From assembly GCA_900188465.1 (NCBI GenBank), contig FZPE01000002.1, positions 62,001 through 126,000 on the forward strand: a stretch of 64,000 nt of DNA, read 5' to 3'. The notes beneath the pieces are model-generated. The model saw only the letters and a list, made by a program, of their open reading frames with translations, searched no databases and was not told where the DNA came from. Of the stretch, positions 10,507 to 39,640 are shown piece by piece. Position 1 is the stretch's first letter; each line of letters opens with the position of its first letter. Source of the DNA: Micrococcales bacterium KH10 (lineage in GTDB: Bacteria; Actinomycetota; Actinomycetes; Actinomycetales; Cellulomonadaceae). A program made the translations under genes and the position numbers.

Positions 10507-12813
10507 ATGACAGACGCAACGACTGCGGGTATCGCATCCCCTGACAACCCGGTGCCGCCGATGGAGCCTGCCCTGGCAGAACACATCGCGGAGCACATCG
10601 CCGATGCGGCACGCGGTAAAGCAGCGGCGACACTGCCCGAGTTGGACGAGCCAGAGGAACTCGAGCCGTTGCCGGCAGACCGGTTCCTCGACCGAGAGAT
10701 CTCGTGGCTGGCCTTCAATGAACGAGTCCTGGAACTGGCCGAGGACGAGACGCTGCCGCTGCTGGAACGGGTCCGGTTCCTGGCGATCTTCTCCTCGAAC
10801 CTTGATGAGTTCTTCATGGTGCGCGTGGCCGGGCTGAAGCGTCGTATCGCCACTGGAATCGCCGTCACTGCCGCGTCCGGACTCAGTCCCCACCAGGTGC
10901 TCGAAGAGATCAGTTCACGCGCTCATGAACTGATGGATCGTCACGCCCGAGTCTTTGCCGATCAAGTCCGGCCCGCATTGCATGATGAAGGCATCACGCT
11001 CGTGCATTGGGGCGAGCTGAGCTCGACGGAACAGGATCGCTTGCGCAAATACTTCCGCAAGCGGATCTTCCCGGTACTGACCCCGCTGGCAGTCGATCCG
11101 GCGCACCCTTTCCCGTATATCTCAGGGCTTTCGCTCAACCTGGCTGTGGTCGTCAAGAATCCGGCTACCGGCAAGGAGCACTTCGCCAGGGTCAAGGTTC
11201 CACCGCTGCTGCCACGTTTCATCGCGGTGGACGAGCGCGGCCGACCGAGCGCGCCGTCGACGCACTCGTCGACCGGCAATGTCGGCCACACCTCCTTCGT
11301 TCCCATCGAAGAGGTGATCGCTGAGCACCTCGATGCGCTCTTCCCCGGCATGGAGATCTCAGAGCATCACACTTTCCGGGTGACCAGGAACGAAGATGTC
11401 GAAGTCGAAGAAGACGACGCCGAGAACCTGCTCAAAGCCATGGAGAAGGAACTGCTGCGACGCCGCTTCGGTCCGCCGGTGCGCCTCGAGATCGCTGAAG
11501 GCATCTCGAGTCGTGTCAGTTCGATTCTGACCCGTGAGCTTGGAGTGAGCGAAGCCGAAACCTACACGCTGCCCGCGCCACTGGACCTGACCGGACTCAA
11601 CATCATCGCCGACCAAGAGCGGCCCGATTTGCAGTACCCGCGGTTCGTGCCGACCACCAACCACCAGTTGGCGGAGGTGGAACGGTCAACACCAACGAAC
11701 TTCTTCGCCGCGATTCGCGCCCGCGATGTACTGCTGCACCACCCGTATGACTCGTTCTCAACGTCGGTGCAGACATTCTTGGAGCAGGCTGCCGCCGACC
11801 CTAACGTACTGGCGATCAAGCAGACGCTTTACCGCACGTCGGGTGACTCTCCCATCGTTGACGCGCTGATTGATGCGGCCGACGCCGGCAAGCAGGTGCT
11901 GGCGCTCGTCGAAATCAAGGCACGTTTTGACGAGCAGGCCAATATCTCCTGGGCTCGCAAACTCGAACATGCCGGTGTGCACGTCGTCTACGGCATCGTC
12001 GGCCTGAAAACGCACTGCAAACTCTCGCTGGTGGTGAGACAAGAACCTGACGGCTTGCGGCGCTACGTCCACGTCGGAACCGGAAACTATCACCCGAAGA
12101 CGGCGCGCCTGTACACCGACCTAGGGTTGTTGACCTGCGAGCCGATGGTGAGCCAAGACGTGTCGCGACTCTTCAACCAGCTCTCGGGCTATGCGCCGCA
12201 AACCAAGTTCTCGCGGCTGCTGGTCGCACCGCGCACCGTGCGCACCGGATTGATCGCCCGCATCGAGCGGGAACGGCGTGCCGCCCTGGCCGGTCACGAG
12301 GCTTGGATCAAGATCAAGGTCAATTCGATTGTCGACGAGCAGACCATCGACGCGCTGTACCGGGCCTCGCAGGCCGGGGTACAGATCGACATCGTAGTGC
12401 GCGGCATCTGCGCAGTTCGCCCTGGGGTGCCCGGGCTCTCCGAGACGATCCGGGTTCGTTCGATTCTCGGCCGGTACTTGGAGCACTCACGTATCTACGC
12501 CTTCGCGAACTCGGTTGGTCCCGCCATTGGAGACGGCGCCGAATCGGGCGTTGAGGTGTACATCGGTTCGGCGGATCTGATGCACCGCAATTTGGATCGT
12601 CGCGTTGAAGCCCTAGTGCGCATTGACGACGCACTGCATGTCGAAACCCTACTGTGGCTAATCGACGAGTCAATGTCAGAGCAGACCTCGTCCTGGCATC
12701 TGGAACCAGACGGTGCCTGGATACGTCGCAACGTCGGCGAGGGTGGTCCGTTGACCGACCTGCAATCTGAACTCATCGCGCGGCAACGTCGTCAGTTGTC
12801 GTCGAGACGCTGA
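10507..12813 (+). CDS. ppk1: polyphosphate kinase 1
   Basis: 768 residues from ATG 10507; the frame opens earlier at 10336 inside mshD without family similarity. It reversibly transfers the ATP gamma-phosphate to polyphosphate. The core begins at [21 protein letters not shown]. The autophosphorylated His lies in [10 protein letters not shown] (about 499-508), and the second active-site His in [11 protein letters not shown] (about 656-666). [16 protein letters not shown], with its phosphate-binding residues, is intact. Length is typical, with an acidic actinobacterial N-terminal extension. The stop overlaps the mutT1 start in TGATG, so the two are translationally coupled. Confidence 0.95.
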
Positions 12814-13835
12814 TGAGTCCGGCCACAGTCAGAGTGGTGCCCGAACCTGCCACGTTCGACGTCACCACCGAAGCCACCGCAAAGGTCGTTCAAGCAGCGG
12901 GCTGCCTCATCTGGCGGTTGCACAATGACGAGTTGCAGGTGCTGGTGATCCACCGTCCGCACCGCAAAGACTGGTCTTGGCCCAAGGGCCAATTGGATAA
13001 GGGCGAACTGCAACCTGTTGCCGCAATACGCGAGACTGCCGAGGAGACCGGGTTACAGGTTGCCCTAGGCCTGCCTCTGCCAGGCTTGCAGTATCTGATG
13101 GCCGATCACCGGGTGAAGCGATCTCATTACTGGTCAGCCACGCCGCTGGGATCACAGGCACCGGTGACTGGTGCCCGATACCCGGTTCACGAGGTCGATC
13201 CGAGCGAGATTGACGAGCAACGCTGGGTCAACGTTTCTACGGCACGCGATCTCTTGACTCGCAAGGCCGATCAGGTGCCGTTGGACGCGCTCGTCCAGGC
13301 GCACGAACATGATCGGCTTGCTACCCGACCGCTGATCATCGTGCGCCACGGCAAGGCCCAGGACCGTTCGCGTTGGTCAGGGAGCGAGAAGACTCGTCCC
13401 CTGACGCCATTCGGCAGCGGGCAGGCGGCTGCCCTGATGCCGCTGCTTGCGGCATATGACTTGGAACGAGTCGTCACGAGCCCGTGGCGCAGGTGTGCTG
13501 CCACCGTTGAGCCTTTCGCGACAGCGAGCGGCGTGGAGCTTGAACGGGTCAAGGCGCTCACCGAGAAGTCGCACGACAAAGATCCTCGCGCTGCGCAAGA
13601 AGTGCTGCGCGGTTTGATCGAGTCTGACACTGGCGCGGTGTTGTGCACCCATCGACCCGTATTGCCGAACCTGCTTGAGATACTGCGCGAGTATTCCCGC
13701 CCGAAGGTCGCTCGTGCATTGCCGCGCTCGTCGCCCTATCTGCAGCCGGGCACCAGCCTCGTCGCGCATATCGCTGAGACCAGCAAAGGGCCTCGGATCG
13801 TGTCAGTGGAGAAGTTCCGTCCCACCGTGTGGTGA
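12813..13835 (+). CDS. mutT1: MutT1-type Nudix hydrolase fused to histidine phosphatase domain
   Basis: 340 residues. The N-terminal Nudix domain (about 25-165) has a complete box, GQLDKGELQPVAAIRETAEETG, with G-x5-E-x7-RE-x2-EE-x-G spacing. The C-terminal part (about 172-340) is a phosphohistidine-type phosphatase opening with IIVRHGKAQDRSRW and SPWRRCAATVEPF. The mycobacterial homologue hydrolyses 8-oxo-dGTP/GTP and diadenosine polyphosphates, and the gene order ppk1-mutT1 is conserved there. The start overlaps the ppk1 stop by one base. A 14-bp tandem duplication (13823-13850) spans the stop codon, so the sequence encoding the last residues is repeated just downstream. Confidence 0.9.
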   Translation: MSPATVRVVPEPATFDVTTEATAKVVQAAGCLIWRLHNDELQVLVIHRPHRKDWSWPKGQLDKGELQPVAAIRETAEETGLQVALGLPLPGLQYLMADHRVKRSHYWSATPLGSQAPVTGARYPVHEVDPSEIDEQRWVNVSTARDLLTRKADQVPLDALVQAHEHDRLATRPLIIVRHGKAQDRSRWSGSEKTRPLTPFGSGQAAALMPLLAAYDLERVVTSPWRRCAATVEPFATASGVELERVKALTEKSHDKDPRAAQEVLRGLIESDTGAVLCTHRPVLPNLLEILREYSRPKVARALPRSSPYLQPGTSLVAHIAETSKGPRIVSVEKFRPTVW

Positions 13836-13867
13836 GCACCGTGTGGTGAGCGCTTGTGTCGTGAACG

Positions 13868-20310: not shown

Positions 20311-20383
20311 GGGCCTCTAGCTCAGTTGGTAGAGCTCCGGACTTTTAATCCGTAGGTCGTGGGTTCGAGCCCCACGGGGCCCA
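20311..20383 (+). tRNA. tRNA-Lys (TTT)
   Basis: 73 nt. The acceptor arms GGGCCTC/GGGGCCC form seven pairs including one G-U. The D-arm GCTCAGTTGGTAGAGC, the anticodon loop CTTTTAA and the T-loop TTCGAGC are all present. CCA is not encoded. An accessory gene stretch starts right after it. Confidence 0.95.
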
Positions 20384-20407
20384 CTCTTCTGATCAGCAGT
20401 TATGTCA

Positions 20408-20447
20408 CATATTTGCCTGTTGAGCGATCGCATGCCAGGCAAATATG
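20408..20447. repeat. 12-bp perfect inverted repeat after tRNA-Lys
   Basis: CATATTTGCCTG (20408-20419) pairs exactly with 20436-20447 across 16 nt. There is no T-tract, so it may be a recombination or processing structure rather than a terminator. Confidence 0.5.
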
Positions 20448-20537
20448 CGTAGTCAGAAATCTCTCCGCCAAACAGCGATCAATCCTCGGCAACGGCCGCC
20501 CCGAGCCTGCCTATACCGGCCGTACGGCGCACCGTTC

Positions 20538-21428
20538 TTATGCTCGCGCTAAGAATCGCTCGAACCGCCACGCCAGGTTTTCCCGATTGGGACTGTGGCT
20601 TGGATTATCGGGTGTCAGAAGCACCCGACCGTGCATTTCTTGCAAGCCGTGCTTCAACATAGGACCGTCGCGCTCGGCTAACAGTTCATCATCCACTACC
20701 ACTCGTGAGTCTGGGGAAATCCCAATGAAGTTCTGGTCATAAGCAGCATGATGTATCTTGCAGAGCGACAGACCGTTGACAACCGTCGGCACTCCCAAAG
20801 GCTCGGAGTCGGGGACGATATGCGCCGCATCGAGCAAGGATCCATGCGCAAGTAGGCAGATCGAACACCGCCGCTTATAGGCGACCAAGACGCGCGTACG
20901 GAATGCGGGTTGGTGTAGACGAACCTTAGCGAGTCGTCTTGCGTAGGCTCGTTGCGAGGCATCGAGTTGTCTCACGTCAGGTATGAATCGGAGTGCCTCG
21001 TCCAAAGCAATGATGAACTCGCGATTCTCGACATCATCGTCGACGACATAAACGGGCGCGATTGGTGTGTAAATATTCGGCTGTTCTTTGCGGAAAAGGA
21101 TCAGTGGAGCACCGGTGCTGATCGCTTCGCGTAGTTTGTTGTTGGCACCACCCCAAGGATCGCCGGCTTGATAGGCGTAGTGAAGGAAGCCATCTTCCGA
21201 CTCTGTGTCAGCGTATGGACCGTGCACAGACTGGACGATAGACAGCGTTGATGCGAAAATCGCGGGATTTCTGATCCCACGCGAACGGTCAATGATCGGG
21301 AATCTGCGGTCATCAATATGGAAGTCGAGAAGCTCAGAACGCTCCAGAAAGCCACCGTTGGCCTCTGCCCGCGCCACGACCCATCCCATGATGCGCCTGC
21401 GCAGTTCGTCCTCAACGACAGATTCCAC
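20538..21428 (-). CDS. HNH endonuclease, predicted restriction-type (COG3440-like)
   Basis: 296 residues from GTG 21428, with GAGAAG 8 nt upstream. The C-terminal HNH domain (about 180-240) has CSIC, DAAHIVPDSEPLGVP and NGLSLCKIHHAAYDQNFIGI, the layout of the HNH_2 family. The N-terminal half has FLHYAYQAGDPWGGANNKLR and a strand-rich segment ending PIAPVYVVDDD, a pattern seen ahead of HNH_2 in predicted restriction enzymes that may read modified DNA. No methyltransferase is adjacent, so a solitary modification-dependent nuclease is possible. It is the first gene of the accessory stretch after tRNA-Lys and diverges from 21608. Confidence 0.82.
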   Translation of the reverse strand: MESVVEDELRRRIMGWVVARAEANGGFLERSELLDFHIDDRRFPIIDRSRGIRNPAIFASTLSIVQSVHGPYADTESEDGFLHYAYQAGDPWGGANNKLREAISTGAPLILFRKEQPNIYTPIAPVYVVDDDVENREFIIALDEALRFIPDVRQLDASQRAYARRLAKVRLHQPAFRTRVLVAYKRRCSICLLAHGSLLDAAHIVPDSEPLGVPTVVNGLSLCKIHHAAYDQNFIGISPDSRVVVDDELLAERDGPMLKHGLQEMHGRVLLTPDNPSHSPNRENLAWRFERFLARA

Positions 21429-21607
21429 GTCAATAGCTTCTCACGCCTGAAATACGTTGGCGATAACGATCTCGTCGGATCGAGCGATGATTCAACCGAC
21501 GCACCATTCAGGACTGTGCGGTCGGCCCATCACCACTCGACGTCGTTGCTTCCGCCGCCGAGCATCGCCATAGGGAGTCGCACGTCACTCTGTGACAGGA
21601 TCGTGTC

Positions 21608-23182
21608 GTGCCCTCCACGCTTCCGCGCATTGCCCAGGGCCTTTCGATCTACGACGTTATTCGCACCAATATCGCCGCCGATGGACGGCTTCACGACGAG
21701 GCCATGTCGCTTCCTGACGACCCTGTGCGCGATGATAATGCCATTTCGTGGGCGCCCGGCGCTCTCGACGGTGTTATGGGTGCCGCAAACAACGACGATG
21801 GGCGCACGCAAGCCAAGAGTGCTGCCAAACTCATCGCAAAGGCAGCGCGCAGGCCGACGAAGCGGGTACTAGATAAGCTTTATGTGAAACTTCTCGAGGA
21901 TGGCACTCCGGACTACGTCGATCTTCTGCTCGAGGAAGTCGGCAACACACGGGTTGCCGCAAGTGCGCTTCACGATCTCGGGGTATGGCTCGCCACCACG
22001 GCTCCCGATCGGTTACCGGTGAAGATCGGGACCGCTCTGATCGGGATCACTGGCCTCGGGCCTGACGCGGAAGTCGTCGCGACACTTGGCACCCATGATG
22101 AGTTCACCTTGTTCGCGGCGGTCGCTATCTGCAATGGTTCCACCTCACCTGAACGGGATCTGTGGCAACTTGCGCAATCCGTTGACGGCTGGGGGCGGAT
22201 CCAATGTGTGCAACGTTTGCGCGGCACGACCGATCCAGAAATCAAAGAATGGCTCCTTCGTGATGGCTACCGCAACTCCGTGATGTACGAGTACCTCGCG
22301 TACACCGCAGCAACGACCGGAGGACTACTGGACGCACTCCGCCGTACGGATATTGACCGGGCACTGCTCACATCGTCGGGCGAGATCATTGACGCACTGA
22401 TCGCGGGCGGACCTGCAGAAGACATCGGCGATCTTGCCGACGCACCCACAGTACTCGGTACCTATCTTGACCTGGTGCATCACCGCGCGGAGACGCTCGT
22501 AGATCTTCGGACGGTCATCTCGATCGATAGGCTCGTTCGAGGAGAAGATGACGCGGAGCGGACTCTCGAACTTAACTGGAGCGCGGAACAGATAGCGCAG
22601 CTGGTGAGCAAGAGTGCTGCAATCTTGGACTTACCTCTGTGGCCGGACGTGATCACAGTTGGGCTTGAGTCCGACGATCCCAGCACGTTTTGGCTCGCGA
22701 ATAACGCTGCTGGCCGTTTCGACATCGACACCTTCGAGTTGCTGTGGGCGCGCCTTCAATCCGATCCTCTCGACGGACCGTGGTACGACGCGTGGCAGAG
22801 GGCAGATTCTGAATCGAGACGCGAATCGCTAGTGGTTCTGGCTCGTGCCACGTTCACCCCGGCGTCGATTGTTACAGGCGGCCCAGACACCTTGGGCTTT
22901 GGCGACGAGTATCGTCTCCATCGAGAACTCGATTGGACATTGCAGGAACTGCACGCGTACCCCGGGCTTGCACCTGATCTGGTTAAGCTCGGGTTGCAGA
23001 GCCCTCTCACCCGAAATCGCAACATGTCCCTGAACGCGCTCAAGGCGTGGCCAGTCACGGTGTGGCCTGAAGGAGTCGAAGACGTGCTTTGCTCGCTCGT
23101 GATCTCTGATGCATACGAGTCGACTCAAGAGCTCGCTCAGGAGGTACTCGAGTTGATGCGGACCGCATCACACCGTCGATAG
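21608..23182 (+). CDS. large helical-repeat protein, unknown function
   Basis: 524 residues from GTG 21608, with AGGA 7 nt upstream. Composition and periodic Leu/Ala patterns suggest tandem helical (HEAT-like) repeats across about 60-520, for example VDLLLEEVGNTRVAASALHDLGVWL and LVKLGLQSPLTRNRNMSLNALKAWP. There is no catalytic motif, signal peptide or transmembrane segment. It diverges from the HNH nuclease (180-nt gap). The role is unknown; a scaffold or sensor in an accessory system is one possibility. Confidence 0.7.
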   Translation: MPSTLPRIAQGLSIYDVIRTNIAADGRLHDEAMSLPDDPVRDDNAISWAPGALDGVMGAANNDDGRTQAKSAAKLIAKAARRPTKRVLDKLYVKLLEDGTPDYVDLLLEEVGNTRVAASALHDLGVWLATTAPDRLPVKIGTALIGITGLGPDAEVVATLGTHDEFTLFAAVAICNGSTSPERDLWQLAQSVDGWGRIQCVQRLRGTTDPEIKEWLLRDGYRNSVMYEYLAYTAATTGGLLDALRRTDIDRALLTSSGEIIDALIAGGPAEDIGDLADAPTVLGTYLDLVHHRAETLVDLRTVISIDRLVRGEDDAERTLELNWSAEQIAQLVSKSAAILDLPLWPDVITVGLESDDPSTFWLANNAAGRFDIDTFELLWARLQSDPLDGPWYDAWQRADSESRRESLVVLARATFTPASIVTGGPDTLGFGDEYRLHRELDWTLQELHAYPGLAPDLVKLGLQSPLTRNRNMSLNALKAWPVTVWPEGVEDVLCSLVISDAYESTQELAQEVLELMRTASHRR

Positions 23183-23477
23183 CGAGAGGTGCAACGACTG
23201 AAGGTCCGAGTAGTGGAGACTGTCGGAACTGCAGCAGATGTGTCGCAGGGAACTACCTGCGTATTTGCGCGTATCCATTCCGGCGATTGCTAGCATCGAG
23301 CGCAGGTCCACGAAATCGAATGTTGGACACGTGGTCCAAGCCATGTTCGTGTTCCGCCGCTACAAGGACGATCGCTGCCTCCACACTGGAGTCGGATCTC
23401 CCCGAAAGACTGCGCCACTACGACCTATACGGCACCGTAGTCGCCATCGGTAAGAACTAACCAGAGGAGGTGGCAAT
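23183..23477. other. intergenic region with a possible gene remnant
   Basis: A 46-codon plus-strand frame (ATG 23320 to stop 23460) ends LRHYDLYGTVVAIGKN and looks protein-like but has no recognisable start signal or homologue. The AGGAGG site of the next gene is at its end. Confidence 0.3.
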
Positions 23478-24461
23478 ATGAGTGAACTTGATGACTTCCC
23501 AGACCTTTCTGCGGATCCCATGGGTTTTCTTCAGGAGTTACGCCGTCGAGCAGAACTCGGAAGAAGAACCGCTGCGGCGCGACCAGGTTGGCAACAGGTC
23601 GCTCCTGTTCTGCTGGGACTCCAAGAGTCAGCAGTTCTGTCCCTATGGGGCGGTCCAGACACGGCACGGAACAGCGAACGTCCTCTGACACCTCTCGCTG
23701 GCGCAGCAGGAGTCTCACCCGGCACACCGCATCTGAACCCAGAAAACTCTTTAGTACTTGGGGTCGCACATTCTTACTTATGGGGTATGCGCGATCATCT
23801 ACAGTCAGTTGCCATGATGTGTCTGACCGAATTACCACCCCGCTCGATAATCGCAATGTCCCGCGTCCTTTTGGATGCAGCAACGAGAACAACCTATGTT
23901 CTTGACCCAAGCATTGACGAGCGCACAAGAATCATTCGCGCGTGCAATCTTCGCTTCGAGTCATTCCGTCAGCAGTTAGCCGACCACCCCGAGGACGTCG
24001 AGAAGCGTGACGAACTGTCCTCCGAGCGCCAGAATCTACTTGATGCCGCACTCGCAGATGGCTTCTCCCAGGTGACCACGAAGGCCGGAAAACCCGAATG
24101 GATGCTTGCGCCAAGAACAGCGGCCCAAACTGTTGAAATGTTCCAAGACGCGTACGGCGAAGACTTCACGAGCCTCTGGCGCGAATTATCGTCTGTGACC
24201 CATGTGGACGAGCGCCCGCATTTTCGATTCGCCTTTGGGCTTGACCCCATTGATGCCGGTCCTCACGCCGCAACTGTCTCAATGATCTACATCCATGTCG
24301 CGGTGTTTGGCGTGGCAGCCGCCGTTGAGGCTGCCGAGCGTTTCTATGGCAATGCTGGCGATCCGCTTGACGAAGAAGCCATTGAGTTGACGCATTTCGT
24401 CTTACAGATGGCGAGCGGGCAACTTGATGATCTGGTGCGAGCAAACGCCGGAATCTCGTAG
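23478..24461 (+). CDS. helical protein of unknown function, DUF5677-like flavour
   Basis: 327 residues with a strong Shine-Dalgarno (GAGGAGGTGG) before ATG 23478. It is mostly helical and cytoplasmic. The segment IIAMSRVLLDAATRTTYVLDP followed by DERTRIIRACN resembles a motif common in DUF5677-like proteins (R-x3-[ED]-x5-W/Y-x-LDP). HVDERPHFRF in the C-terminal part may be a further conserved site. I know no function for this type. It lies in the accessory stretch between helical and nuclease genes. Confidence 0.72.
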   Translation: MSELDDFPDLSADPMGFLQELRRRAELGRRTAAARPGWQQVAPVLLGLQESAVLSLWGGPDTARNSERPLTPLAGAAGVSPGTPHLNPENSLVLGVAHSYLWGMRDHLQSVAMMCLTELPPRSIIAMSRVLLDAATRTTYVLDPSIDERTRIIRACNLRFESFRQQLADHPEDVEKRDELSSERQNLLDAALADGFSQVTTKAGKPEWMLAPRTAAQTVEMFQDAYGEDFTSLWRELSSVTHVDERPHFRFAFGLDPIDAGPHAATVSMIYIHVAVFGVAAAVEAAERFYGNAGDPLDEEAIELTHFVLQMASGQLDDLVRANAGIS

Positions 24462-24615
24462 GCCCAGCAACTCACCAAGGGAACGGTCACGCCCACGCTA
24501 GGGTGAAACCATGGGTTGGCCGTGTCAGACCCTCGTGGAAGCATCTTTACATGAGCAAATCAAGTGCTCATCGCAGACGTACCGCTAAACTGATTACAAG
24601 AACAAGGAGATCCTC

Positions 24616-24798
24616 ATGGCAAACATGAAGAACAAGAAGCGAGGACGCAGTTCGGCGGTGATCACGGCACCAGCAGGCACCGACCCGAGGTGGCAGGAAA
24701 AAGTTGCGGTCGCGCAACAAGCGCGACGGAACACAGCCGCTACTAGGGTTGGTAAGCCTGCGAGTTTTCGGGCTCAGGTAGGACGTACTGTCGGATGA
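24616..24798 (+). CDS. small basic protein coupled to the ClpP-like protease
   Basis: 60 residues: MANMKNKKRGRSSAVITA at the start, then a helix-forming EKVAVAQQARRNTAATR. AAGGAGA lies just upstream, and the stop overlaps the protease start in ATGA, strong evidence that it is translated. It has no recognisable domain. It could be a substrate, adaptor or inhibitor of the protease; that is inference from coupling alone. Confidence 0.7.
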   Translation: MANMKNKKRGRSSAVITAPAGTDPRWQEKVAVAQQARRNTAATRVGKPASFRAQVGRTVG

Positions 24799-25658
24799 GC
24801 ACCCCACTTGGCGGTCAGAGCAAAACTTATCTCTTCGCAGCCCAGCATTCTGAAAGGTACGACCGTCAAGGTTTGATTCGCCGCTACGAAGAGATCACCG
24901 GTGCCCGTTTGATCGTAATGATCGATCAGGTCTTCAGCCACAGTGTGACTTTACTTGAAGAGTTACTTACAGGTGCTGATCCCCAGCAAGAACTACATCT
25001 TTTACTTTCCAGCCCAGGCGGAGACGGTGAGGTTGCGGTTCGCTTGGTTCGTGCAATGCAAGCCAGATGTTCTCGTCTCGTCATTGCCGTTCCAGATATG
25101 GCTAAGTCAGCCGCAACAATCATGTGCCTAGGCGCGAACGAACTATTGATGGCTGCCGCGAGCGACCTTGGCCCTGTGGACCCCCAGTTCCCAATCAACA
25201 ACAGACTCGTAGGAGCGAAAGAGATCGAGAAGGCAGTGGCTGACGCAGAAGCACGCATCGCCGCCGTTCCAGAGTCCTACCCAATGTACGCGGGACTTCT
25301 TAGCGATCTCAACATGTTGATGGTTGAGCAGGCCCGCGCTGCAATGGACCGTAGTTACACACTCATTGACGAAGCACTTGCATGTTCGGGGCTGAGCAAA
25401 GACAAGCGAAATAAAGTGGTCGAGAAACTAAGGGGACCACTGATAGACGAAGCAAAGTCTCATGGCGCGACAGTCGGGCCAGACCATGCACGGGAAATGG
25501 GTCTTCCAGTAACCACGGTTGACCAGGACTCGGAAACTTGGCAGTTAATCTGGGCACTCTGGACTCGCTACTTTGCTTTGGGCGCTTGGCCCGCAGGGCC
25601 AGTCTCTGTCTACGAGAGCGCAAACGCCTCACAAGTTCAGATGCCGCCACCCAGCTGA
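24795..25658 (+). CDS. SDH_sah / ClpP-like serine protease
   Basis: 287 residues. The ClpP/crotonase-type fold shows LHLLLSSPGGDGEVAVRLVRAM (oxyanion Gly-Gly) and IAVPDMAKSAATIMCLGANELLMAAASDLGPVDPQ, where the Ser of AKSAAT (about 108) is the nucleophile. The SxLGPxDPQ motif is the signature of the serine dehydrogenase proteinase (SDH_sah) family. No signal peptide or transmembrane helix is visible, unlike SppA. Homologues occur scattered in accessory and prophage-like regions; their substrates are unknown. It is coupled to the 60-residue gene upstream and followed by 535 nt without a gene. Confidence 0.85.
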   Translation: MSTPLGGQSKTYLFAAQHSERYDRQGLIRRYEEITGARLIVMIDQVFSHSVTLLEELLTGADPQQELHLLLSSPGGDGEVAVRLVRAMQARCSRLVIAVPDMAKSAATIMCLGANELLMAAASDLGPVDPQFPINNRLVGAKEIEKAVADAEARIAAVPESYPMYAGLLSDLNMLMVEQARAAMDRSYTLIDEALACSGLSKDKRNKVVEKLRGPLIDEAKSHGATVGPDHAREMGLPVTTVDQDSETWQLIWALWTRYFALGAWPAGPVSVYESANASQVQMPPPS

Positions 25659-26193
25659 CCTCGGCGCCACGTCCCCGACACCGGCCAACGATCGTTCGTA
25701 ATTAATTACGTGTGTCGCAGTGAACACTACCCCGGAGGACCGACCGCAAGGATTTCATGAACTGGGCCACCCAAACACCAGTCCATCGTCGCAGGTCAAC
25801 GAGTTTCACAAACATACCACTCGTCTGACCAGCAGTTTTACTACGAGCTGGACGTTCGCACTTCGCGTGTTATCGCCCGTGCGCAGTGAGTAGCGTTACC
25901 TCCCGACAATGGGCTGACATAGTCGCTCAAGCAGAACATCGGATACAAAGCGACTGTGTAACGGAACGGCTAGTAGGACAGGCAGGGTAACTAGCTACAG
26001 GTCTGACTATTCTGGAGATCCTCGCGGCCTTTACTGCTGGCGAGTATGGTTTTCCGTTGCTGGAGACGTTTCATTGACAGAGCCTGGCTAGATCGAGCTA
26101 CCGAAGGCGCCCCGGTCGAGCCGCAGATTTTCTAGCGGATCTGTCGATCCCTGCGGTTCATCGGATGACGATCGAGGTGTACCGCTCAGATGC
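25659..26193. other. non-coding stretch, possible gene debris
   Basis: No gene is supportable. Short plus-strand frames interrupted by stops look protein-like (for example LTILEILAAFTAGEYGFPLL near 26020-26080 and FLADLSIPAVHRMTIEVYR before 26195), suggesting decayed genes. A perfect 14-bp palindrome CGTAATTAATTACG is at 25697-25710. Confidence 0.4.
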
Positions 26194-26871
26194 TTAGGCG
26201 ACCGGTTTCACGCCATATAACCTCATCCAAAAGCGATGATATTCCGCGCGCTGCGAGCCGCCGCCGTGGGCGACAATCGCTGCGTATTTGGATAGAAGCC
26301 CATCCCACTCGACCATACGATCAGGCCGCTCGATTATCGGCAGGTCGTCGGCGGGTGAGTCTGACTTCAACAAGTTGCACATCGCATGGAGCGTGACCAG
26401 ATTGGATGGATCGCTTGAACCTCCACGAGCGTGAGCAACAACGTGATCTGCCTCAGGTGCAAGCCAGAATGCCGGATGTAGCGCGCCGCGCTTGTAATTC
26501 GGGTGATATGCAAATGCGTCCTGGAACACATCACTGATCGCAACAAGAACGCAACGTGGGATAGTCCGCTTGCCACAGTAGAGGCAAAGAAAACAATCTC
26601 GACGGAACACGTTAACGCGGTCCTGGTGTGATACCGCCCGCTTGGCTATTTCTGTGTTCGCGTCCAAGGCCGGTGATCGTGCAGGTCGAACGAAACGTCC
26701 AAACCAAAGCTCATCGGCGATCGGCGCTAGTTCAATAACAGCCCTCTCAAGATTGGAATTCTCAATAGACGAACTGACCGCAGAAAGCACATCCACATAA
26801 CGCTCAACAGCTTCGTCATCAATCGCCAAGATGTCTGCCACGTCGCCTAGCGTATAGCTGACGTGCAGCAC
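26194..26871 (-). CDS. HNH endonuclease
   Basis: 225 residues, probably from GTG 26871 (start uncertain, no clear Shine-Dalgarno). The HNH domain spans about 85-180: RRDCFLCLYCGKR supplies the first Cys pair, WLAPEADHVVAHARGGSSDPSNLV the catalytic His region and the Asn, and LHAMCNLLKSD the last Cys. The N-terminal 80 residues are helical, the C-terminus is basic and aromatic. It is unrelated in detail to the nuclease at 20538. Stand-alone HNH proteins of this kind may be restriction or homing-type enzymes. Confidence 0.82.
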   Translation of the reverse strand: MLHVSYTLGDVADILAIDDEAVERYVDVLSAVSSSIENSNLERAVIELAPIADELWFGRFVRPARSPALDANTEIAKRAVSHQDRVNVFRRDCFLCLYCGKRTIPRCVLVAISDVFQDAFAYHPNYKRGALHPAFWLAPEADHVVAHARGGSSDPSNLVTLHAMCNLLKSDSPADDLPIIERPDRMVEWDGLLSKYAAIVAHGGGSQRAEYHRFWMRLYGVKPVA

Positions 26872-36120: not shown

Positions 36121-39100
36121 ATTGCCTCTCGACGAGCCGCAAGAACGCGCTTAATTCGGCCACACCTGCCGGTGTAGCGGGCAGATAGTCAACGAGATGT
36201 GGTGAATAGATCAGGTAACTCGCCCACTGTGCTCGAGAAATCGCAACGTTGAGTCGATTTCGTTGCAGCAAGAATCCCATCCCGCGCGGAACGTCCGTCG
36301 GCGATGAGGCCGCCATCGATAGCACAGAAATGACAGCCTCACGTCCCTGGAACTTGTCGACCGTGCCTACCGAGACATCCGACAGACCGGCTCGTTCCAA
36401 CGCTTGGGAGATCGTCGCGACCTGCGCGTTATACGGGGTGACGACAATGAAGTCTTGCTGCGTCAGGGCTCGTGTCGAACTTGCTCCTTCTTGCTCGGAC
36501 CATTGCTGACCGATAAGGCGCTCGACGAGTTCGACGACTTTCGCGGCCTCCTCAGGCGAATCCGTCGATCGCCCATAGTGCGGTACCTCAATCGGATGTA
36601 GACCCGCACTCATCGGGCAGTCTGATGTTTGATCCGCGGCGCGCAGCGTGCGGCTCAACGCTGCGCCGGTTGCATTCAGTTTCCCGGCATAGGACAGGTC
36701 GGAGACGACCCGGGTCAGCTCAGGAGTCATGCGCCTGGTCTCCCCGAGGAAATATCCGAACTTGGCGGGCAGCACATCTTCGCTGGCACTGAGGTGCCCC
36801 AGCGCTGACATATCTGTGGGAGCCGGGTGCGTTCCTTGTGAGACCTGCGGCAGTTGTTGCGGATCTCCGAGTAGCAGGAGATTCTTGGCTGCCACCGCTG
36901 ACGAGATCGTGGTCGCCAGTGAATATTGACCGGCCTCGTCGATGACGAGCAAGTCCAGTTGCCTGCGTCCCACCTTCATGGAATCCGCGAAATCCCATGA
37001 GGTACCGCCAAGCACCAGTCCCGGAGCACTGGTCAGGAACTCCATCACGCCGGTGGAACGCACTGCTTGCCAGGGAAGTTGCTCGGCTTCAGCGACTGTG
37101 GCAGTTGGATTGAGTTTCTTCCCGACCAGGTGAGCTGGCAGACCTGCGGCGATGACGCCTCGCAACAGGTTTTCGATGGTGGCGTGTGACTGTGCCACAA
37201 CGCCCACCTTCCACCCGTGGTCGCGCACGAGTGAGGCAATGACGTGCGCGCCGGTGTAGGTCTTCCCGGTTCCAGGCGGTCCCTGAACCGCGATATAGGA
37301 GTTGTCGAGCCGCAGTAATGACTCCACAATCGCTGTCACGGTGTCTGGTGTTCCGGTGTCACCGGGGCGGGCAAGCTCGCCGTGGCGCAGTCGTGATGGC
37401 GAACGACGCAGGATGTCCGCCGCAGGATCACGTAGCCATCCTGGTTGGGCCTGCAGAACGTCGGTGGCCCATTCTTCGATCGCTTGCGGCATCTTCCCCG
37501 GGGCGACCGGCGCGGCCGGGGTGACCGCTAGTGGCACGTCGTCATACAGTTCGATGCCGTCCGGGCAGCGTTCTTCGAGGAGCAGCACACCGTTGTCGAT
37601 ATCGATGTCGATCACCGTCACTCTGGCATGGCTGGGCCGCTGTGAGTGTTGCGGTGTCCGGCCAAGGTCAGGTCCGCCAAAGTCATACACCAAGAAGGGA
37701 TTTGCCCCCGCCCGCAGGGTCGATCCGGCACCGAAGGTACCGGTCAATTGGAGTTCGCGCCGATAGCTGCGCTGTCTGCCCTGTGGCGGTTCCCAGTCCT
37801 GCCTCATTCGTACTGACTCGACCACCATGACATCGCGGGTATCCGCCCAGTCATCCACTGGGTCTTGTAACCGGGCGAAATGCGACCACCAGAAACTCTT
37901 TGCTTCGCGGCGGTGGTATTCAACGGCGGCACTGGCCAAACTCAATGCTTGTTGATCTGCTGTGCGCTCTGGATTGGACGGGTCGCCCGCTAAATCTTGC
38001 AGTGCTTGCGCGACATCGGAGGGTTTCGCGGCGAACTGCTCCCGCGAAGCGAATTCCACAAGGTCACCCAGACTTTGCGCCGTCCCGGGAACCGCTCCGA
38101 ACTGTGCCGCGGTCGTGATGAGCCATCGATGCAGCTGCGCTGTCGAGACGCAGTCGACCTCGTTGTAGTCGGCAATCGCTTCGAGTGCCTTGGCCGCTTC
38201 ATCCTCGTCACTTTGTTGCACCGACTCGCGGTAAACCCAATAGGCCTCGACCGAGGCTGCAGCGGTTTCGACATCGCCTTCGCGTTGTTCCTCGGGAAGG
38301 TAGAGGTGTTCGATGGTTTTGAGCGAGTATGAGTCGGATCCGACGGTGAGCATGCGGCGCACCACGGGATAAAGGTCGACGAGCACGCCGTCGCGCAGCA
38401 ACGCGTCAACCTGTTCTTCGCCGACACCGTGCCGGGCGGCGATGGAGAGCAGGTGGGTTTTCTCGTACGGCGCATAGTGGTAGATGTGCATCTTCGGGTA
38501 CCGCGTCCGGCGACGTTGCACAAAGTCAAGGAAGTCGAGGAGTGCTTGGCGTTCCTGAGCCAAGTTGTGTGCCCAAAAAGCCGTGAACTGATGTGAGACA
38601 TCAACCATCCCGAATAGGTAATCCAAACCCCACTGGGTTTCGTCCTGGGTCATGCCTGGTTCGGAATAGAGCGGGTCGCCCTCGAAGTCGAAATAGAGAT
38701 CGCCTTCATCCGGCTCGGGCAATGCAGCAACGACATGGGGCTCACGTACTTCGTAGGGAAGCTCAACCGTACGGTGACTTTGAATCTGCAATCGAGCCTG
38801 ATTGCGCAGGTTGTTCAATGTCGCATTCGCAATCCCTGCGACGGGACCGGTGATCGATGCCAACTGGGTCATCGTTGCGATACCGGCACCGTAAAGCGCC
38901 TCGCGCTGGTTGGCACGCAGGCCCGCAACCTGGATGATGTCATCGGCACGTTCAACTTCCGGTGTGCACCACTCGCAACGACCACACGCCTGGACCTGTC
39001 TACTTTCCCACGTCACCGGGTGATCGGCAGCCACCCGCTGCTCGACCAGGTCGTAAAGACGCTGTTTCCGGGCCCGGAAAACCGGGGCGATATCGACGAG

Positions 39101-39640
39101 CGCGTGAACCGAAGTGCTGCCATCTCCTAAAACCAGCACGACGTCACCGGCTACCGGTACCCCGATCTTCTCGAGTTGTTCCGCATACGCCGCCAGTTGC
39201 ATCAATGCTGTCACTTTGGCTGAACGTGCCAGTTTCGTGTCAACGACCTGGTAACGCCCATCAGGCTGTCGCACCACGAAGTCAGCGAAACCGATCATCT
39301 TCCCGTCGAAGAACGTCGCCTGGAAAACGACATCGGCACCATCGTCGAACGCCGCCTTTGTAGCTGCTATCGCTGCATCCAGTTCGACGTCATCATGCAA
39401 CCGCGGTCGCTCGATTTCGACCACTGAGGCCGTCTCGACCTTGAACCGGGCAAGGACATTCTGTTCGTGGCGATCACCCAGTTGGGAGGCTCTAGCGGCC
39501 ATCGGATCACTGGGCGCGTCAACGCGCTCAATCCGACCTAACAGTGCATCGAGTCTGCGCCCAAAGGCGAATTCACACGCTGAAGCAACGGCGAGGTCCG
39601 ATGGACTGGTGATGATGCGGCCATCACTGATGCGAAACAT
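36119..39640 (-). CDS. TM0106-family RecB-like nuclease fused to SF1 (Dna2/UPF1-like) helicase
   Basis: 1173 residues. The N-terminal part (about 1-260) is a RecB/Cas4-like nuclease with GDRHEQNVLARF, YQVVDTKLARSA (active-site D and K) and a Cys cluster CGRCEWC. Next comes an RNase H-like DEDD exonuclease domain (about 310-520) with YFDFEGDP and DYNEVDC. The helicase has Walker A QGPPGTGKTYTGAHV (about 785), Walker B LLVIDEAGQ, and late motifs VGTVDKFQGREA and RNRLNVAISRA. Such fusions act in DNA repair or processing. TACAGT ends 6 nt before ATG 39640, suggesting a leaderless message. It lies downstream of a secreted-protein gene and is probably not functionally tied to it. Confidence 0.88.
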   Translation of the reverse strand: MFRISDGRIITSPSDLAVASACEFAFGRRLDALLGRIERVDAPSDPMAARASQLGDRHEQNVLARFKVETASVVEIERPRLHDDVELDAAIAATKAAFDDGADVVFQATFFDGKMIGFADFVVRQPDGRYQVVDTKLARSAKVTALMQLAAYAEQLEKIGVPVAGDVVLVLGDGSTSVHALVDIAPVFRARKQRLYDLVEQRVAADHPVTWESRQVQACGRCEWCTPEVERADDIIQVAGLRANQREALYGAGIATMTQLASITGPVAGIANATLNNLRNQARLQIQSHRTVELPYEVREPHVVAALPEPDEGDLYFDFEGDPLYSEPGMTQDETQWGLDYLFGMVDVSHQFTAFWAHNLAQERQALLDFLDFVQRRRTRYPKMHIYHYAPYEKTHLLSIAARHGVGEEQVDALLRDGVLVDLYPVVRRMLTVGSDSYSLKTIEHLYLPEEQREGDVETAAASVEAYWVYRESVQQSDEDEAAKALEAIADYNEVDCVSTAQLHRWLITTAAQFGAVPGTAQSLGDLVEFASREQFAAKPSDVAQALQDLAGDPSNPERTADQQALSLASAAVEYHRREAKSFWWSHFARLQDPVDDWADTRDVMVVESVRMRQDWEPPQGRQRSYRRELQLTGTFGAGSTLRAGANPFLVYDFGGPDLGRTPQHSQRPSHARVTVIDIDIDNGVLLLEERCPDGIELYDDVPLAVTPAAPVAPGKMPQAIEEWATDVLQAQPGWLRDPAADILRRSPSRLRHGELARPGDTGTPDTVTAIVESLLRLDNSYIAVQGPPGTGKTYTGAHVIASLVRDHGWKVGVVAQSHATIENLLRGVIAAGLPAHLVGKKLNPTATVAEAEQLPWQAVRSTGVMEFLTSAPGLVLGGTSWDFADSMKVGRRQLDLLVIDEAGQYSLATTISSAVAAKNLLLLGDPQQLPQVSQGTHPAPTDMSALGHLSASEDVLPAKFGYFLGETRRMTPELTRVVSDLSYAGKLNATGAALSRTLRAADQTSDCPMSAGLHPIEVPHYGRSTDSPEEAAKVVELVERLIGQQWSEQEGASSTRALTQQDFIVVTPYNAQVATISQALERAGLSDVSVGTVDKFQGREAVISVLSMAASSPTDVPRGMGFLLQRNRLNVAISRAQWASYLIYSPHLVDYLPATPAGVAELSAFLRLVERQ

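What the first reader, a model, noticed from the sequence alone, without database searches (positions are those of the whole stretch)
20311..26871. Accessory cluster starting at tRNA-Lys with nucleases and a ClpP-like protease
Seen: directly after tRNA-Lys come two unrelated HNH nucleases, a 524-residue helical-repeat protein, a DUF5677-like helical protein, a small basic protein and an SDH_sah protease, with gene debris between. tRNA genes are common island targets. I find no integrase and no duplicated tRNA end. Inference: a defence-island-like region; the protease/small-protein pair and the repeat protein are candidates for an undescribed system.
Basis: inference. Interest (0 to 1): 0.6.

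Follow-up and report, generated by a model that had tools for sequence, protein, structure and literature searches.

The report
Travelling protease and its tiny partner
Next to a tRNA gene where visiting DNA lands sits a gene pair, a protein-cutting enzyme and a tiny companion protein, that recurs in unrelated bacteria and phages and is probably a portable weapon or defence device whose use is still unknown.

Summary
20385-26871 is an accessory block behind tRNA-Lys: GC 56.3% against 61% next to it, and absent at this site in sisters G001 and G002. In G001 the same tRNA-Lys carries a 37.9-kb prophage with a 44-bp repeat. The window has no recognised integrase and no duplicated tRNA end.

The block is not one system. 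HNH1 lies elsewhere in two sisters. The 327-aa gene has an 84% second copy elsewhere in this genome. The 524-aa protein is a sporadic orphan.

The real find is the 60-aa/287-aa pair (24616-25658), overlapping by 4 bp. The small gene precedes the protease in 11 of 12 loci with upstream DNA (10 by similarity, one by motif; missing in one decayed locus). Across 13 loci no other gene is shared, except integrases in two. Sites include a phage, integrase neighbours and tRNA 3' ends. The protease has the ClpP fold; Ser105, Asp129 and His223 are kept in 25 of 25 relatives. It groups with peptidases of Bub (ubiquitin-like) operons, yet this genome has no ThiF/E1 match.

Best reading: a mobile protease-partner cassette, probably used in phage or element conflict. 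Unit and mobility are well supported; defence is inferred; the partner's role is unknown.

The parts
20311..20384 (+). tRNA-Lys(ttt), left border; identical to the tRNA-Lys that is a prophage attachment site in sister genome G001
20538..21428 (-). HNH1, 296 aa; C-terminal HNH_2 domain like those of modification-dependent restriction enzymes; homologs at other loci in G001 and G002
21608..23182 (+). 524-aa probable helical orphan protein; sporadic relatives in Actinomycetota and on plasmids incl. Rhizobium
23478..24461 (+). 327-aa protein of no known family; 84% second copy at G000:C4:211563-212543, near an HNH_5 gene and tRNA-His
24616..24798 (+). 60-aa basic partner protein (pI 12); W..K...A..AR......R.GKP.SFR..VG pattern; stop overlaps start of the protease (ATGA)
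24795..25658 (+). 287-aa ClpP-fold SDH-type serine protease; Ser105, Asp129, His223 invariant
26194..26871 (-). HNH2, 225 aa, HNH endonuclease, 46% to a Curtobacterium plasmid protein; right end of the low-GC block

Best explanation
The functional unit in this island is a two-gene cassette: a 55-70-aa, mostly basic partner protein and, coupled behind it, a ClpP-fold serine protease. It travels as cargo of phages and integrating elements among Actinomycetota, and here sits in a tRNA-Lys hot spot beside unrelated cargo. The protease shares ancestry with the peptidases of Bub ubiquitin-like operons, but in this host it works without E1, E2 or a ubiquitin-like protein. Mechanism I consider most likely: the partner is the protease's cognate ligand, its conserved C-terminal segment binding at or near the active site as guard, adaptor or dedicated substrate. 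When a phage or competing element disturbs that complex, the protease is released or aimed and stops the infection. Shown: conserved pair, overlap, varied and partly mobile sites, conserved catalytic-type residues, no ThiF/E1 match in the genome. Inferred: binding, proteolysis, defence.
For: Partner: of 12 loci (window included) with DNA upstream of the protease, 10 have a small ORF there that matches another locus's partner by tblastn at E 0.01 or better; L060 has one by position and motif only; L059, decayed, has none. Stop and start overlap in window, L015, L016, L018 and L058 and lie 2 bp apart in L022; the protease start is unassigned in the other five. No match at the same threshold in 8 outgroup loci (L041-L045, L061, L069, L070). 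Flanks of 13 loci share only the protease, plus integrases of L015 and L068. More synonymous than non-synonymous change in both genes, synonymous sites near saturation. Contexts: phage contig L022 upstream of the terminase; phage-type integrase next to the protease in L015 and L068; 252 bp after a tRNA-Pro 3' end in L016 and 39 bp from a tRNA-Leu 3' end in L058. Ser105/Asp129/His223 in 25 of 25; pair clade 100/100, inside a 95/90 group with the Bub peptidases and viral L070. Bub operons. No ThiF in G000 or G483. Model pLDDT 87.7, best Z 13.9 to NfeD 1510-N, ClpP tied.
Against: No experiment. No PADLOC model matches either gene. L017, L018 and L019 lie among what look, by eye, like chromosomal genes, with no tRNA in the fetched DNA. 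Restriction-like neighbours were recognised only for the window and Demequina (EcoRI-type methylase with a GmrSD/HNH protein); most other neighbours were judged by eye alone. Some copies are broken (L018 stop codon, G033 frameshift, G573), so the pair is dispensable. Four other carriers (G033, G045, G573, G642) do have ThiF matches, so a tie to E1-type enzymes is excluded only for G000 and G483. The tree fork joining pair clade, Bub peptidases and L070 is unresolved and midpoint-rooted. The partner has no recognisable fold and its binding is untested. In the order the pair is rare (5 of 396 genomes incl. own, two of the five broken).
Confidence: 0.5

Rival explanations
1. The pair is a regulatory or housekeeping proteolysis module: the partner is an adaptor or a regulated substrate (for example a small nucleic-acid-binding repressor that the protease removes under stress), with no role against phages.
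For: In L017-L019 the pair lies among chromosomal-looking genes. The partner is strongly basic in most members (pI 10 or more in 10 of 11), as a nucleic-acid binder might be. HTH-plus-peptidase controllers exist: CapH+CapP is named in a passage of PMC13373217.
Against: The pair sits in phage and integrating elements and in a different neighbourhood in each compared locus, and is very sporadic, unlike housekeeping genes. No DNA-binding family in the window partner. The palindrome before it is not conserved and 22 of 200 shuffles reach it.
Confidence: 0.25
2. A phage structural (head-maturation) protease with a scaffold-like small protein, left behind by a prophage.
For: A copy lies upstream of a terminase in viral contig L022; PHROG head-maturation proteases are distant hits.
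Against: L022 has its own head-maturation protease after the portal (12658-13848, phrog_2976 E 1.1e-122) besides the pair. At the non-phage loci I recognised no capsid genes by eye in the ORF lists. The window block has no blastn match among 50,697 phage records.
Confidence: 0.05
3. The protease is still a deconjugating enzyme acting on ubiquitin-like conjugates made by other cells or elements, and the partner replaces DUF6527 as its cofactor.
For: In Bub operons DUF6527 occupies the same slot, overlapping the protease by 4 bp (L042); the tree groups the pair clade with Bub peptidases; four of the carrier genomes have ThiF matches.
Against: No ThiF/E1 match in G000 or G483. The window partner has no DUF6527 match, and 10 of 11 partners have no cysteine, unlike the DUF6527 proteins printed.
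Confidence: 0.1
4. The whole 6.5-kb block (two HNH nucleases, repeat protein, 327-aa protein, pair) is one multi-gene defence system.
For: Adjacent genes, shared low GC.
Against: None of the other genes appears beside the pair in the 12 other loci compared. HNH1 is at other loci in sisters; the 327-aa gene has a separate copy; genes lie on both strands, with gaps of 154-535 bp between all but the pair.
Confidence: 0.03

Closest known systems
Peptidase of Bub (bacterial ubiquitination-like) operons
   Same: Same 95/90 group of the tree; ClpP/SDH family; shared PD.AKSA / DPQ / SH motifs; in L042 a small gene (DUF6527) overlaps its start by 4 bp
   Different: 28-31% identity only; here no ubiquitin-like protein, E2, E1 or DUF6527 gene beside it; a 60-aa basic partner instead; no ThiF/E1 match in the genome. 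The name Bub is applied by recall and by passages of two papers
SDH-type serine proteinase, Pfam PF01972 / NCBIfam NF047768
   Same: Pfam match above its gathering score; shared Ser, Asp, His columns
   Different: NCBIfam equivalog reached with 58 of the required 250 bits; a separate clade with its own partner and a Lys142 found in 11 of 11 clade rows and 0 of the other 14
NfeD 1510-N protease (PDB 3viv, 6m4b) and ClpP
   Same: Fold: Z 13.9 and 13.7 (tied), 174-179 residues aligned
   Different: Lys142, which might stand for the lysine 138 mutated in the 1510-N entries, is confined to the pair clade, whereas His223 is invariant; I saw no Clp ATPase or NfeD/stomatin gene next to the pair by eye
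tRNA-borne defence and prophage hot spots
   Same: Same tRNA-Lys hosts a prophage and, further on, a ThsB-TIR gene in sister G001
   Different: The window copy has no attachment repeat or recognised integrase left

Membership tests
SDH_protease (PF01972) | Profile score above the curated cut-off | tested here: met
   35.5 bits, cut-off 31.3
SDH_protease (PF01972) | Catalytic serine and other conserved polar residues kept | tested here: met
   Ser105, Asp129, His223 in 25 of 25 aligned relatives; catalytic role inferred
NCBIfam Clp_like_SDH equivalog (NF047768) | Score above the equivalog cut-off | tested here: not met
   58.3 bits, cut-off 250
ClpP (PF00574) | Score above cut-off | tested here: not met
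   20.1 bits, cut-off 20.2; fold is ClpP-like all the same
Bub operon | Peptidase related to Bub peptidases | tested here: met
   Tree, 95/90 group of pair clade, Bub peptidases and viral L070, inner fork unresolved
Bub operon | Ubiquitin-like protein, E2, E1 and DUF6527 genes beside it | tested here: not met
   No such match among the neighbours tested; no ThiF match in genome G000
Phage head-maturation protease | Takes the prohead-protease slot next to portal and capsid genes | tested here: not met
   Phage contig L022 has a separate head-maturation protease
Known anti-phage system (PADLOC 2.0) | Model hits for the pair | tested here: not met
   0 families for both proteins at E 1
Anti-phage defence | Protects cells against phage | not testable with these tools
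   needs plaque assays
Toxin-antitoxin pair | Protease toxic alone, neutralised by partner | not testable with these tools
   needs expression assay; only gene order and overlap seen
PT-dependent restriction enzyme (NF045808), for HNH1 | Score above cut-off over the whole protein | tested here: not met
   67.6 bits, cut-off 180, only residues 168-290

The most novel reading that the evidence does not exclude
An undescribed class of mobile, E1-independent protease systems: a Bub-type peptidase separated from ubiquitin-like conjugation and re-paired with a tiny cationic protein that serves as its guard or only substrate, used by actinobacteria, integrating elements and temperate phages to kill or exclude competing phages.
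Probability: 0.33. Interest if true: 0.7.

Novelty: new variant of a known kind. Interest (0 to 1): 0.5.

Why it matters
[quoted passage not shown] A related peptidase clade that moves alone with one 60-aa partner is a minimal system in which the peptidase's own activity and control can be studied without the conjugation cascade. If the pair blocks phages, it adds a protease-based mechanism carried by phages and islands of Actinomycetota.

Tried and rejected
Rejected: one multi-gene system. Head-maturation protease. Operator palindrome before the partner (22 of 200 shuffles reach it; not conserved). att relic in the window: best 17 of 24 bases anywhere, 16 within 20385-45000, as in shuffles. 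DUF5677 label.

Led nowhere: viral scans for the 524-aa, 327-aa and HNH1 proteins found no relative. Plasmid search for the 327-aa protein: no match. Solved-structure searches for HNH1 and the 524-aa protein: none. The single-sequence model of the 524-aa protein is too poor to use (pLDDT 41). The Bub papers themselves (Ye et al., Gong et al.) are not held, so what they show is known to me only from passages in PMC13373217 and PMC12687455 and recall. Literature searches around this pair listed no paper whose title or abstract start describes it; they cover open-access text only. In PMC1779556 I looked only at passages holding 'protease'.

The Foldseek and VIA-align rows shown name no Bub peptidase structure; that absence says nothing.

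Changed on re-check: the partner count is 10 of 12 by similarity, 11 of 12 with L060 by motif, not 11 of 11; ThiF matches in other carriers and the unresolved tree fork are now told; several genes named by eye were confirmed by Pfam.

Rows left out: L018 enters A1, A2 and the tree from 8127 on because of a stop codon before it. L059 (G573), L023 and L027 (broken or cut) are not in the tree. L068 and L023 have no upstream DNA and are not counted for the partner. L035 was tried for the tree, but no ORF of it passed.
Full report
OBSERVATION. The window is G000:C5:62001-126000 of a 2.8-Mb genome; its nearest named protease relatives are Actinomycetota. Pfam gives HNH_2 for the first nuclease and HNH for the last, SDH_protease (35.5 bits, cut-off 31.3) for the protease, and nothing for the 524-aa and 327-aa proteins, so 'DUF5677-like' is not supported. 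The block has GC 56.3% against 61.3% (10-20.3 kb) and 61.2% (28.6-36 kb), with 59.3% further right; GC3 is 0.54-0.64 against 0.70-0.78 in six flanking genes. The genes from 27045 on are core-like again.

ACCESSORY OR CORE. MFS, MarR, MsrB, M50B peptidase and tRNA-Lys are in the same order in all three congeners. After tRNA-Lys, G001 and G002 differ from the window; G003's contig ends 973 bases beyond the tRNA and cannot be judged. The next gene shared with the window (36128-39631) lies 15.7 kb from tRNA-Lys in the window, 4.6 kb in G002 and 60 kb in G001. In G001 a prophage starts right at the tRNA: a minor tail protein, an integrase and a 44-bp repeat of the tRNA end 37.9 kb downstream. Beyond it lie further cargo genes, among them a serine recombinase and a type III restriction-like helicase and a ThsB-type TIR gene. 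The tRNA sequences of window and G001 are identical. The window itself has no second tRNA end. The protease and the 524-aa protein have no match in G001-G003. HNH1, however, is present in G001 (80%) and G002 (73%) at other loci. So the site is a real insertion hot spot, and the block is mixed cargo.

THE OTHER CARGO. HNH1 resembles, in its C-terminal half only, HNH domains of modification-dependent restriction enzymes (PADLOC HNH 2e-20; NF045808 67.6 of 180 bits), and 50 plasmid records hold relatives, all under 60% identity. HNH2 is 46% identical to a Curtobacterium plasmid HNH protein. The 524-aa protein has matches in 5 of 346 genomes of the phylum (own included) and in 5 plasmid records, one from Rhizobium at 38% over 91%; its single-sequence model is mostly helix but too poor to use. 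The 327-aa protein was found only in this genome (1 of 346 genomes), but twice: the second copy (84%, pN 0.085, pS 0.37) sits beside an HNH_5 gene and near a tRNA-His.

THE PAIR. The 60-aa ORF (upstream AAGGAG) ends in ATGA, which starts the protease. Relatives at or above about 48% identity came from genomes (L015 Demequina, L016 Actinomyces, L017 Micrococcales MAG, L018 Propionibacterium, L019 Pseudopropionibacterium, G033, G045, G573, G642) and viral contigs (L020-L023, L067, L068). Twelve loci, window included, have DNA upstream of the protease. In 10 of them a small ORF there matches the partner of another locus by tblastn at E 0.01 or better (L022 only at 0.006). In L060 (G045) an ORF of that kind is seen by position and motif only, with no match at E 0.01. 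In L059 (G573), where only residues 118-281 of the protease match and stops interrupt it, there is none. Six positions (P19, W26, A33, R37, R44, F51) are invariant among the 11 partners. Eight outgroup loci (L041-L045, L061, L069, L070) have no match at the same threshold. Both genes show more synonymous than non-synonymous change, with synonymous sites near saturation. Across the flanks of 13 loci (ORFs of 60 aa or more, E 1e-8) nothing is shared but the protease, frame shadows of it, and integrases of L015 and L068. Sites: phage contig L022 upstream of the terminase, which has its own head-maturation protease; next to a phage-type integrase in L015 and L068; 252 bp behind a tRNA-Pro 3' end (L016) and 39 bp from a tRNA-Leu 3' end (L058). 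L017-L019 show no tRNA in the fetched DNA. In L015 it follows an EcoRI-type methylase and a GmrSD/HNH protein.

FREQUENCY. Matches, own genome included: 2 of 39 genomes searched as relatives, 5 of 396 genomes of the order, and 9 of 396 of the phylum at E 1e-15, of which only own and G045 exceed 45% identity.

THE PROTEASE. The model (11 sequences) has mean pLDDT 87.7. VIA-align gives Z 13.9 to the NfeD protease 1510-N and 13.7 to ClpP, a tie. Ser105, Asp129 and His223 are present in 25 of 25 aligned relatives; Lys142 in the 11 rows of the pair clade and in none of the other 14. I infer a Ser-His-Asp site. The tree puts the ten pair proteases, with L068 inside, in one group (100/100). A 95/90 branch holds this group, four peptidases from ubiquitin-like operons and viral L070, but the fork among these three is unresolved and the root is a midpoint. 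In Phenylobacterium and Methylocystis the order multiubiquitin, E2, ThiF, DUF6527, peptidase is annotated; in Rhizobium the multiubiquitin, ThiF and peptidase genes are annotated; G128 has Prok-E2, ThiF, DUF6527, peptidase. I call these Bub operons by recall and by passages of PMC13373217 and PMC12687455. The window genome, its sister G001 and G483 have no ThiF match, while the control search rings in 12 of 14 named genomes. Four other carriers (G033, G045, G573, G642) and the Bub-bearing G128 do have ThiF matches, whose kind was not examined. Conjugation in trans is therefore unlikely in the window's host and in Demequina, and open in the others.

MECHANISM. Shown: gene overlap, conservation, varied and partly mobile sites, conserved catalytic-type residues, no E1 match here. 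Inferred: the partner binds the protease. The conserved parts of the partner are a W-to-R stretch and a C-terminal GKP.SFR..VG segment after a variable start, which suits a docking peptide. I consider guard or dedicated substrate more likely than DNA-binding regulator, because no DNA-binding family was found in the window partner and no conserved palindrome precedes the genes.

VERDICT. Real accessory island at a proven hot spot; one system as a block is not supported; the pair is a conserved, mobile unit that I did not find described in the open-access searches.

Noticed in passing
L031 and L076 (G001:C3:104000-136000): Between prophage end and next shared gene G001 carries further cargo: a serine recombinase, a ResIII helicase of 1096 aa, an MmeI-methylase-like ORF (below its cut-off), a ThsB-type TIR gene and an HTH/M78 peptidase gene.
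   Followed up: partly
L056 5953-14148 (G000:C4, 210-219 kb): Second copy of the 327-aa gene beside an HNH_5 gene, with tRNA-His and an ORF holding a recombinase zinc-ribbon domain a few kb away: perhaps a second island with related cargo.
   Followed up: partly
L061 (G128:C10): Actinobacterial ubiquitin-like operon (Prok-E2, ThiF, DUF6527, SDH peptidase) with a GmrSD gene about 1 kb upstream.
   Followed up: partly
L074 7980-8870 and L075 7391-8281: HNH1 homologs in two sister species at unrelated loci (in G001 a HipA gene lies 2.7 kb on), so this nuclease changes place within the genus.
   Followed up: partly
L060 4680-5582 (G045): DUF3800 protein about 2 kb upstream of a small-protein/protease pair.
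   Followed up: no
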